A stretch of 64,000 nucleotides of DNA. Source: Lysobacteraceae bacterium NML91-0213. Lineage in GTDB: Bacteria > Pseudomonadota > Gammaproteobacteria > Xanthomonadales > Xanthomonadaceae. The DNA lies in contig NWQL01000003.1 of assembly GCA_002798175.1 (NCBI GenBank), forward strand, positions 1 to 64,000, written 5' to 3'. Each line of letters starts with the position of its first letter. Position 1 is the stretch's first letter. A program made the translations under genes and the position numbers. The notes below the pieces were generated by a model, which saw nothing but the letters and a program-made list of their open reading frames with translations, made no database searches and had not been told where the DNA came from. Below, piece after piece: positions 1-3,696 of the stretch.

Positions 1-1323
1 GGCGACCAGCGGCTCGGCCGCGACTGCCGCGCCCTGCGCCCGCGCGTGCAGCTGTTCGGGCGACCAGGGCAGGGCGGCGTCGCCCTCGAGCGCGGCCAGC
101 GCGTCGTACAGCGGCGTCCAGGCGGCCTGGGCACGGGCCAGCACGGTGCCGTCGACGGTGGGCAGGCCAAGCCGGTCGACCGCGGCCAGCTGCTCGCGCA
201 CCGCCACGATGTCGCGCAGCAGACCGTCGCGCAGCTGCAGCAGCCGGTCGCGGTCGCGGCTGGCCAGTTCGTCCAGCTGCGCCTGCCCGCCGTAGCCCTC
301 GCTGCCCTGCAGCAGCGCCTGCGCCCGGCCGTGCTCGGCGCGCAGGCTTTCGCGCTGCACGCGTGCGTCGGCCAGTGCGCGCTGCGTGGCCGCCAGGCCA
401 GCGGTGGCTTCATCGAATTCCTCCTGCGCCCGTTCGACCTGCTCGCCCAGCAGATCGCGCTCGTACGCGGCGGCCAGCGCGCGATAGGAGGCCGCGCGCA
501 CCGCCTGGGCGGCGATGCGGCCGTACTGCGCATCGGCCTTCGCCGCCGATTCGATGCGGTGCTGCAGCTGCTCAATGCGCTCCTTGATCTGCCGGAAGCT
601 GTCGAGCAGGGCGCGGAAGCGGGCGACGTCGGTCGGCCGGTCCTCGGCCACCAGCGTGCGCACGAACAGGTCGACGTCCTCGACGCGCTGCAGGTTCAGC
701 GCGTTCTGGAAGGCCTTGCGGAAGGCGTTGAGGTCGGGATGCGCGCCCGGCGCGGCGCGCAGGCGGGTCAGCAGGTCCTTGACGAAGCGCTCGCCGCTGG
801 CGTGGAACTCGGGGCTGGTGCCGGCCTCGCGGCAGCGGCGGCCGGCGAGCTCGCGGAAGCGGCTCCATTCCAGCGGCAGCTCCTTTCCGCTGATCCTCTC
901 GACGTGGTCCTCCAGTTCCAGGACCACCCCCGGCAGCAGGTACAGGCCGTGCTGGCGGTGGTCGGGCTCGTCGACCGACGCGCCCAGCGCGATGCCCGCG
1001 GTCAGCGGCAGGCCGCTGTCCTGGTCGCGGAACACCAGGCTGATGTAGGTGGTGGCGGTGCGGCGCTTGCGGCCGTCGTCGCCGCTGCGGTACACGCCCA
1101 GGCAGTAGTCGCGGATGCTGCGCGCGCGGGCCTTGCCGCCGGCCTGGGCGTTGAAGTGGATGTAGCGGCGGTCGCCGCCGAGCAGCACGATCTGCAGCGC
1201 GTCGAGGAGCGCGCTCTTGCCGGCGCCGTTGGGGGCGATGATCGCGCTGGTGCGGTCGAACTGCAGGGTCTGCGCCTCGAACAGGAAGAACTGCAGCAGG
1301 TGCATCCGTTCAAGCTGCTGCAT
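1..1323 (-). CDS. jetC: Wadjet JetC-like SMC/SbcC-family ATPase (partial, C-terminus off the window)
   Basis: This would be the SMC-type motor of a Wadjet complex, which in studied systems extrudes and helps cleave small circular plasmid DNA. The frame is open from the ATG at 1323 to the window edge (441 codons seen). Residues 30-37 form a Walker A (APNGAGKS) right after an N-terminal strand typical of SbcC/MukB-like heads, followed by a long Arg/Glu/Ala-rich stretch consistent with coiled coil. The start overlaps the 3' end of jetB, giving the order jetA-jetB-jetC expected of Wadjet; jetD (Toprim nuclease) would lie beyond position 1 and cannot be seen. A second ATG at 1305 is possible. The family call rests on the neighbours as much as on the head motif; a generic SbcC-like ATPase is the alternative. 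Confidence 0.78.
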   Translation of the reverse strand, partial: MQQLERMHLLQFFLFEAQTLQFDRTSAIIAPNGAGKSALLDALQIVLLGGDRRYIHFNAQAGGKARARSIRDYCLGVYRSGDDGRKRRTATTYISLVFRDQDSGLPLTAGIALGASVDEPDHRQHGLYLLPGVVLELEDHVERISGKELPLEWSRFRELAGRRCREAGTSPEFHASGERFVKDLLTRLRAAPGAHPDLNAFRKAFQNALNLQRVEDVDLFVRTLVAEDRPTDVARFRALLDSFRQIKERIEQLQHRIESAAKADAQYGRIAAQAVRAASYRALAAAYERDLLGEQVERAQEEFDEATAGLAATQRALADARVQRESLRAEHGRAQALLQGSEGYGGQAQLDELASRDRDRLLQLRDGLLRDIVAVREQLAAVDRLGLPTVDGTVLARAQAAWTPLYDALAALEGDAALPWSPEQLHARAQGAAVAAEPLVA

Positions 1324-1944
1324 CGTCGTCCTCCGTGGCCAGGCCGGCGTCATCGTGGTCGTCGTCGAGGGTGTGCTGGTCAAGGCGCTGCAGCCACTGC
1401 TCGCCGACGATGTCGACGATGGCCGGGCGCACCAGCAGGTGAAAGGGCTGGAGTTCGTCGGGTTCGCCTTCGACCAGGCGGCAGACGCCCCAGCGCTTGA
1501 GCGTCGCGGCCAGCGCGCGCAGCGTGCCGATCTCTGGCATCGGCCGGTCGGTGAGCGCCGGGTAGGCCTCCTGCAGGTCGGGCAGTTCCACCACCACCTC
1601 GCCGTGTTCTTCGATGCGGCCCTGGCGCATGGCCTCGTCGTAGCGCTGGCGCAGGACCAGCAGCAGGAGGGTCTCGTCCAGGCGCACCGGCGTGCCTTCG
1701 CCGTGGCGGGGCAGGCGACGATGTAGCGGTGGTTGCCGTTGCGCTCCAGACGGATGCCCAGCGGCGCCAGCGCCGCCGCGAAGTCGTCGAGGAACTCCTC
1801 CACCAGTTGGTAGGCCACGCGCGTACGCTGGTCGGCGGCATACAGCACCTGCTCGGTTACCAGGCGGTAGGCCACGCGCTCGAAGTCCTGTTCGGTATAG
1901 GTGCCATTGGTGAGTTGGCTCAGCGTGTTCCAGCTGCGTTTCAT
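1310..1944 (-). pseudogene. jetB: Wadjet JetB-like protein (DUF4194), single-base frameshift
   Basis: JetB is the KITE-type bridging subunit of Wadjet. The ATG at 1944 overlaps the jetA stop (ATGA). Translation gives a DUF4194-like N-terminus (MKRSWNTLSQ... to HRYIVACP), but at the run of four C on the coding strand (1708-1711 in plus coordinates) the rest of the domain (RHGEGTPVRLDETLLLLVLR...) continues in the -1 frame to the stop at 1310. Restoring one C gives a plausible 211-residue protein, the usual family size. As written, the N-terminal frame has no stop and reads straight into jetC, so no intact JetB is encoded. Either this is an inactivating mutation or an indel error in a homopolymer; programmed frameshifting is possible but the site is not a canonical slippery heptamer. 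Confidence 0.75.
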
Positions 1945-3389
1945 GCGGCGGTCCGTGGCAGTGGCGCGGGGCGGTGGAGGACGAAGCGCGGCGCGCGCAG
2001 GAAGCCGTTGTCGCCGGGTTCGCCGGCGTCGAGCACTTCAACGCGGACGCCTTGCAGCAGGCGGGCCAGCGGATCGTCGCGGCGCAGGCCACCGATGCGC
2101 CGGCTGCGTTGGGCAAGCGTCAGCAGGGTCTGGTAGGCGCGCAGGTCCTGGATCGAGGCGATGCCGAGCTGCGACGACTCCACGCTGCCGATGGCAGGAA
2201 GGTAGCGGCCGACGTAGCGCGCCATGTCGTCGGCGGTGACCAGGCGCGCGCGTTTCATCCGCCGCAGCAGGGCCAGGCGCGCCAGCTGTTCGGGGGTGGG
2301 CCGCTGCACGCTGTTGGCGCTGCGCGGGATCGGCCGTGGCTTGCGCCGGGGCGGGCGCAGCTGGTGTTCGTCCATCAGCGCGCCGGGCGCCACCGGCATG
2401 CGCAGGTCTTCCTCCGGCGCCCGCAGCGCGCCGCGGCAGGCGCGGCGCAGCAGCGCGTCGAGCCGGTCCGGTGCGCGCAGGCGGTAGTCGAGGAAGGCCA
2501 GCGCGCGGCGGTTGGCCTGGCGCATGTCCTCGTCCAGGCGCGCCAGGTATTCGTCGATGCGATCCAGCTCCTGCAGTCGGCGCAGGGCGCGCTGCAGCCG
2601 CGCTTCCGCGCGCTGTGCGTCGCCGTCGGCGAAGTGCTCGCCGTACCAGGCCAGCAGGCGGTCGCGCAGCGGTCCGGTCTCCAGCTGCCGCGCCATCGCC
2701 AGGATCGCGCTGCGCCGCGCCAGCGGGTGGTCGGCCTTGTGCAGGTCGGCGTAGTCGCCGATGAAGAAGCGGCCGACGTAGCGCTCGAACCACTGGCGCG
2801 CGAACTGCGCGGTGGTTTCCGAGCGGCTGAGCTCCGGCATCAGGTCGCGCACCTGCAGGCTCATCGAGGCCAGCGAGGCCAGCAGCCGGCGCGCCTGGTC
2901 GGCGGCCTCGTCCAGCGTGTCGCCGCCGGCGCGGCCTTCGAGCACCTGCTGCAGCTGCAACTCGATCGAGCGGATCCGCGCCGAGACGAAGGTCGGGCCG
3001 CGCTCGGTGAATTCGAGCAGCAGCGACAGCAACTGCGATACCGCAGGCGTCATCGACGCCATTTCACGCGCGCCGAGCTTCTCCTGCCGCAGCCAGCCGG
3101 CCTGGCGGAAACGCTCGTAGATGGTGTTGGCGCGGATGGCCAGCGGCGTGTCCGGCGCCTGTCCATCCTCGGCCTCCCATGGATCATCGCCCAGCAGGTA
3201 GCGTTCGATCGCCGAGGTGATCTCGCGGCGGGGATAGCCCTGGCTGGGCGGGGGCGGTGCGTCAGGGCCGAAGAACTCGTCGAACAGGCGGCACAGCAGC
3301 AGCCAGTAGTGCTCGCGGTTAGCCGAGGCCAGCGGGCTGAACAGACCCGGAGGAACCAGCGAGAACAGGGTGGGCGGCGATGTCGTCAA
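1941..3389 (-). CDS. jetA: Wadjet JetA-like kleisin subunit
   Basis: JetA is the kleisin-like subunit that links the SMC heads in Wadjet. The call rests on the characteristic N-terminus (LFSPLASANREHYWLLLCRL then FDEFFGPD), a winged-helix-like segment with YPRREI, an all-helical middle with many Arg and Glu, and the order with jetB and jetC. I chose the TTG at 3389 because GGAG lies 7 nt upstream and homologues begin near the LFSPL segment; the longer open frame upstream looks non-coding. That gives 482 aa, a normal length. The stop overlaps the jetB start by ATGA, so the two are translationally coupled. No other function is evident; a MukF/MksF-type condensin kleisin would be the main alternative. 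Confidence 0.75.
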   Translation of the reverse strand: MTTSPPTLFSLVPPGLFSPLASANREHYWLLLCRLFDEFFGPDAPPPPSQGYPRREITSAIERYLLGDDPWEAEDGQAPDTPLAIRANTIYERFRQAGWLRQEKLGAREMASMTPAVSQLLSLLLEFTERGPTFVSARIRSIELQLQQVLEGRAGGDTLDEAADQARRLLASLASMSLQVRDLMPELSRSETTAQFARQWFERYVGRFFIGDYADLHKADHPLARRSAILAMARQLETGPLRDRLLAWYGEHFADGDAQRAEARLQRALRRLQELDRIDEYLARLDEDMRQANRRALAFLDYRLRAPDRLDALLRRACRGALRAPEEDLRMPVAPGALMDEHQLRPPRRKPRPIPRSANSVQRPTPEQLARLALLRRMKRARLVTADDMARYVGRYLPAIGSVESSQLGIASIQDLRAYQTLLTLAQRSRRIGGLRRDDPLARLLQGVRVEVLDAGEPGDNGFLRAPRFVLHRPAPLPRTAA

Positions 3390-3696
3390 ACGGACTCTCC
3401 GGCCGGGCGGGGTGCCCGGGGACCAACGTGGCCGCACCAGTATCGCCGTGAGCGTCGCGGCAGGCGAGACGGCCGGTACCCACCGCACGCCGGTGATTCC
3501 GCCCGGCGTTGCATCCTTGCACCGCCGGGAAAGAGCGGCCTGCTCCGCATACGCGGACGGCGTGCGGGCCTGATGTGAATGGAGCCCGGTGGCGCGCGTG
3601 GGCATCAGCGGTTGATCCCCGCACCCGCGGCCCCCATCCCTGTACGGACACGCGCCCGCGCATCCGCGCCGCGGCGCCGTCTTCCGGAGAGCTGTC
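3390..3696. other. Intergenic region between divergent jetA and the LLM gene
   Basis: About 300 bases with no convincing gene. It must hold the jetA promoter (minus strand) and the promoter of the mini-ORF/oxidoreductase unit (plus strand), but I see no clear -35/-10 pair, operator or terminator. Short open frames here have neighbours' shadow composition and no ribosome site. Confidence 0.5.

What the first reader, a model, noticed from the sequence alone, without database searches (positions are those of the whole stretch)
1310..1944. Wadjet jetB is split by a one-base frameshift
The N-terminal part of JetB is in the frame of the ATG at 1944; after the C-run at 1708-1711 (plus coordinates) the recognisable DUF4194 C-terminal half is in the -1 frame. 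Adding one C restores a 211-aa protein. Without it the plasmid-defence operon lacks its bridging subunit.
Basis: seen in the sequence. Interest (0 to 1): 0.72.

Follow-up and report, generated by a model that had tools for sequence, protein, structure and literature searches.

The report
Plasmid-defence gene broken by frameshift
In this probable Luteimonas genome one of the four genes of a known plasmid-destroying defence system (Wadjet) is out of frame by one base, which most likely leaves the system dead; it is an ordinary gene lesion or an assembly error, not a new kind of system.

Summary
The frameshift is really in the sequence. The window opens a 200-kb contig of a genome whose same-genus relatives are Luteimonas. 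jetB of a type I Wadjet operon lies at 1310-1944 (-): its first 77 residues match PADLOC JetB positions 1-77 and the next 133, in another frame, match 79-211. JetB is in one frame in 43 of 43 loci from named records, in 12 of 12 other genus genomes with a match, and in 35 of 36 matching genomes among 398 of the order, the exception being this one; samples overlap. jetB and jetC overlap by 14 bases in 43 of 43 relatives, and the lesion puts jetB into jetC's frame, open to the contig start. jetC continues on another contig, followed by an open jetD. The operon is about 95% identical to that of a relative whose other long matches are 72-88%, so it was probably acquired recently. Best reading: recent single-base inactivation (0.6); assembly error not excluded (0.33).

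The parts
1941..3389 (-). jetA (kleisin), one open frame; likely TTG start at 3389; its stop overlaps the jetB ATG (ATGA)
   Evidence: PADLOC JetA PDLC00456 E 1.4e-226 in one frame; Pfam JetA E 3.2e-51; start inferred by reading the sequence
1713..1944 (-). jetB 5' part, 77 codons, in the frame of the ATG at 1944
   Evidence: PADLOC PDLC00498 positions 1-77, E 2.4e-34
1713..1716 (.). place of the one-base alignment gap relative to relatives (aligned between 1715 and 1716)
   Evidence: the other gaps to G007 are 9 bases in the jetB tail and two single bases at 3411 and 3421, upstream of jetA
1310..1711 (-). jetB 3' part (133 codons plus stop), in another frame
   Evidence: PADLOC PDLC00498 positions 79-211, E 4.3e-54; Pfam DUF4194 6e-16
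1310..1323 (-). 14-base overlap of jetB end and jetC start, same length in 43 of 43 relatives
   Evidence: window coordinates read
1..1323 (-). jetC (SMC subunit), first 441 codons, cut by the contig start; continues on contig C14 (705 codons), followed there by an open jetD
   Evidence: PADLOC PDLC00513 positions 1-428 and 437-1137 on C14; jetD PDLC00529 positions 2-390 of 394
1..1944 (-). single open frame produced by the lesion: jetB residues 1-77, about 130 out-of-frame codons, then jetC
   Evidence: 648 codons from the ATG, open at the contig start

Best explanation
A type I Wadjet operon (jetABCD), probably acquired recently by horizontal transfer, has lost the reading frame of jetB through a single-base deletion near codon 77-78. 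Shown: the frame change, its uniqueness in three samples of relatives, and that jetA, both readable parts of jetC and jetD are open. Inferred: that the change is a real, recent mutation. Inferred mechanism: ribosomes starting at the jetB ATG make 77 correct residues and then read on in the jetC frame through the jetC start codon, giving a JetB'-JetC fusion instead of JetB; without the KITE subunit the JetABC motor should not assemble and plasmids should not be cut.
For: Two-frame match to one JetB profile. One frame in 43/43, 12/12 and 35/36 of three overlapping samples. The only frame-breaking gap inside genes of the operon relative to G007. In the rest of the window no other real frame break was recognised among gene-like ORFs of two relatives (26 stretches, 40.8 kb, the Wadjet stretches included). 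The site is not a long homopolymer. [quoted passage not shown] All four subunits are required (PMC10586767, passage). The jetB/jetC frame relation and 14-base overlap are constant in 43/43.
Against: No reads, no second strain and no named record of this genome were available. The assembly breaks inside jetC 1.7 kb away, and the two contig ends, which map to the same ~13 bases of G007, disagree with each other. dN/dS against G007 is low in both jetB halves (0.05 over 76 codons, 0.15 over 133), like jetC and jetD (0.20-0.25): no sign of decay, which fits an error as well as a very recent mutation. The window-wide control has limited sensitivity: it caught the jetB break only through an antisense ORF of G003. 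Loss of function was not tested.
Confidence: 0.6

Rival explanations
1. Sequencing or assembly error: the strain's jetB is intact and the operon works.
For: The only frame-breaking gap inside genes of the operon relative to G007; selection looks unrelaxed in both halves; a contig break with disagreeing ends lies 1.7 kb away in the same operon; no other broken jetB in three samples.
Against: No other real frame break recognised in 26 gene-like stretches (40.8 kb) of the window, within that screen's limits; no long homopolymer at the site; it lies 1.7 kb inside the contig.
Confidence: 0.33
2. Recoding: ribosome slippage by one base at the four-C run just downstream of the gap gives some full-length JetB, so the operon is expressed weakly rather than lost.
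For: By reading, a tRNA on the CCC codon within 1708-1711 could re-pair one base back (inference).
Against: The same run is present in the two nearest relatives, which do not need it; no classic slippery heptamer (by eye); the RNA downstream is not unusually structured (z 0.12; 107 of 200 shuffles fold at least as well).
Confidence: 0.04
3. The fused JetB'-JetC frame is itself a useful product that is being kept.
For: The frame is open across jetB into jetC; the corresponding frame is open in only 4 of 43 relatives.
Against: An open frame in 4 of 43 intact relatives shows that it also arises without any fusion (the window is 71% G+C); about 130 residues of the fusion are out of jetB's frame; seen in a single genome.
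Confidence: 0.03

Closest known systems
Wadjet type I (jetABCD)
   Same: Gene order jetA-jetB-jetC-jetD; the products hit the PADLOC type I profiles PDLC00456, 00498, 00513, 00529
   Different: jetB is out of frame; operon split over two contigs by the assembly
   Same: About 95% and 83-85% DNA identity over the operon (records); same four-C run at 1708-1711
   Different: jetB in one frame in both
Incomplete Wadjet I of Stenotrophomonas maltophilia (PMC11680222, passages seen)
   Same: A Wadjet I operon of the same family lacking one working subunit, called probably inactive by its authors
   Different: There jetD is absent; here jetB is broken and jetD is open
Xylella fastidiosa Wadjet pseudogenes (PMC9148166, passages seen)
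   Same: Degraded Wadjet genes in the same family
   Different: JetA and JetC there, jetB here

Membership tests
Wadjet type I | JetA kleisin, JetB KITE, JetC SMC and JetD nuclease encoded together | tested here: met
   PADLOC type I profiles for all four; rest of jetC and jetD at the end of contig C14; adjacency of the contigs inferred from the matching jetC parts and from G007, where the operon is continuous
Wadjet type I | All four reading frames intact | tested here: not met
   jetB in two frames; jetA, jetD and both readable jetC parts open; the junction inside jetC could not be checked
Wadjet type I | Restricts small circular plasmids | not testable with these tools
   Needs a transformation assay; all four subunits are required in B. 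subtilis (PMC10586767, passage)
   G007 and G003 have the same run

The most novel reading that the evidence does not exclude
The one-base loss is tolerated because JetB is still made at a low level by slippage at the adjacent C run, or because the in-frame JetB'-JetC fusion is a working product, so that the frame state tunes Wadjet instead of killing it.
Probability: 0.03. Interest if true: 0.6.

Novelty: new member of a known kind. Interest (0 to 1): 0.17.

Why it matters
A strain with a freshly broken Wadjet should accept small plasmids that its relatives destroy, which is a simple, testable prediction, and a profile search alone would count this operon as present. Beyond that it is an ordinary lesion in a known system. 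The more general point is in the surroundings: among the relatives sampled here Wadjet is often found without jetD (13 of 43 loci) while a broken jetB was seen only in this genome, and jetABC without the nuclease stays conserved.

Tried and rejected
An insertion sequence in jetC as the cause of the contig break: not supported, since the first bases of C9 match G007's own jetC; not excluded for the unread junction. Plasmids in the genome as a sign of a dead Wadjet: the five small contigs that could be read show no exact terminal overlap of 15-300 bases; three of them were only skimmed as ORF lists; inconclusive. Near-identical operon on plasmids: no match at megablast sensitivity. A solved JetB structure on which to map the break: phmmer gave only two weak, unrelated hits (best E 0.54). 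Other frame breaks in the window: the loose screen flagged places near 3.4, 17.8-19.1, 32.0, 38.3, 43.6 and 51.2 kb besides jetB. With gene-like ORFs only jetB (through an antisense ORF), 43.6 and 51.2 kb remained. I read these two as upstream read-through before a ubiE-like gene and as the adjacent genes mreD and a PBP2-like gene. The others were not looked at one by one. jetA has no dN/dS value: the alignment was out of register and the motif used was missing in G007.

Full report
Setting. The window is bases 1-64000 of contig C9 (200,346 bases) of a 3.24-Mb, 15-contig genome. No call names this genome. Same-genus genomes can be named by equal contig lengths: G003 is Luteimonas padinae, G014 L. 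huabeiensis, G025 Luteimonas sp. RC10, G030 Luteimonas sp. FCS-9, and G007 is the MAG record JAAZHF010000223.1. 'Luteimonas' is inferred from this.

Observation. On the minus strand jetA ends at 1941 and jetB begins at 1944. The first 77 residues match PADLOC JetB (PDLC00498) positions 1-77; the 133 residues from 1711 down to 1313, in another frame, match 79-211 of 211. Pfam gives DUF4194 for both halves, under its cut-off for the first. DNA alignment with eight relatives and with G007 alone shows a one-base gap at 1713-1716.

Is it unusual? JetB is in one frame in 43 of 43 loci from named records, in 12 of 12 other genomes of the genus with a match (13 of 52 match, this one included), and in 35 of 36 matching genomes among 398 drawn from the order (the remaining one is this genome). 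These samples overlap. As a control for sequence quality, gene-like ORFs taken from G003 and G007 loci were compared with the window: 107 of 244 had a match of at least 55% identity, covering 26 stretches and 40.8 kb, the Wadjet genes included. Three places were flagged: jetB itself, but only through an antisense ORF of G003, which shows the screen's limits; 43.6 kb, which I read as upstream read-through before a ubiE-like gene; and 51.2 kb, which is the adjacent pair mreD and a PBP2-like gene. A looser screen flagged more places, not all looked at one by one.

The rest of the operon. jetC runs off the contig start after 441 codons; 705 further codons and an open jetD (396 aa, ending 9 codons earlier than in G007) lie at the end of contig C14. 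On G007's map the two contig ends cover the same ~13 bases but differ from each other. The break is therefore an assembly problem at this spot and the junction cannot be vouched for. This is the main reason why assembly error keeps a third of the weight.

Consequence. jetC starts 14 bases before the end of jetB in 43 of 43 relatives, always in the same relative frame, which suggests translational coupling (inference). The one-base loss moves the jetB frame into that of jetC, and no stop intervenes: from the jetB ATG the frame is open for 648 codons to the contig start. In relatives the corresponding frame is open in 4 of 43. The expected product is a JetB'-JetC fusion with about 130 out-of-frame residues between, and no JetB; this is inferred. 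The review PMC10586767 (passages seen) states that JetA, JetB and JetC are kleisin, KITE and SMC, that all four subunits are required against plasmids in B. subtilis, and that JetD contacts a motif at the JetB N-terminus. Loss of function is thus likely but untested.

Age and origin. The operon is 94.6% (C9 part) and 94.9% (C14 part) identical to G007's, while the local matches of the rest of the window to G007 that score over 300 bits are 72-88% identical. G007's left flank is absent from this genome except for six matches of at most about 60 bases. Recent horizontal acquisition is the simplest reading; mis-binning of the G007 contig (listed with 5% contamination) is a caveat, and its right flank was compared only with the first 20 kb of the window. 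dN/dS against G007 is 0.05 and 0.15 for the jetB halves, 0.25 and 0.20 for the jetC parts and 0.21 for jetD. There is no trace of relaxed selection: the lesion is very recent, or not real.

Recoding. The CCCC run could in principle let a tRNA re-pair one base back, but the run is shared with intact relatives and the RNA downstream is no more structured than its shuffles (z 0.12). I give this 4%.

Known or new. Nothing here leaves the known kind 'Wadjet type I'. Degraded Wadjet is reported in the family: JetA and JetC regarded as pseudogenes in some Xylella strains (PMC9148166, passages), and jetD-less Wadjet I in S. maltophilia, called probably inactive (PMC11680222, passages). A Clostridium strain with a spontaneous deletion of the Wadjet genes, among other deletions, took up plasmids better (PMC12287153, passages). 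Three paper searches listed 20 of 27, 15 of 26 and 20 of 30 papers; none of the titles shown names a jetB frameshift. Only four papers were opened, all by passages.

Noticed in passing
L146, L148, L151, L153, L155, L156, L159, L164, L167, L170, L176, L177, L180 (loci): 13 of 43 relatives have jetABC with no jetD found in the locus (a 14th, L184, is cut by the contig end). JetD_C was found genome-wide in 1 of 12 such genomes searched (L180's was not held) and in 2 of 2 with-jetD controls. On a FastTree JetC tree of 42 rows presence/absence needs 10 changes, not more clustered than shuffled labels (mean 11.2; 119 of 500 shuffles as low). The ORFs after jetC look unrelated to JetD by eye. jetC dN/dS in six pairs with a jetD-less member is 0.09-0.15, in four with-jetD pairs 0.09-0.13. 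This extends the jetD-less Wadjet I reported in S. maltophilia (PMC11680222, passages) and hints at a nuclease-independent role of jetABC.
   Followed up: partly
window 1-3471 and contig C14 31650-32277 and 32878-36176: The Wadjet operon plus a small gene next to jetD is 92-95% identical to G007, while long matches of the rest of the window are 72-88%: a probably recently transferred defence cassette without a shared left flank.
   Followed up: partly
window 1-14 and the end of contig C14: The two contig ends inside jetC map to the same ~13 bases of G007 but disagree with each other, as with a strain mixture or a poor-quality junction.
   Followed up: partly
L173 near 9130: jetD of Luteimonas sp. 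FCS-9 matches only from about residue 129 on: possibly another broken Wadjet gene in the genus.
   Followed up: no
L022 5809-5868; own genome C9:66545-66604 and four other places: A short sequence of about 57 bases in G007 occurs at five places in this genome at 91-93% identity; a dispersed repeat, not examined.
   Followed up: no
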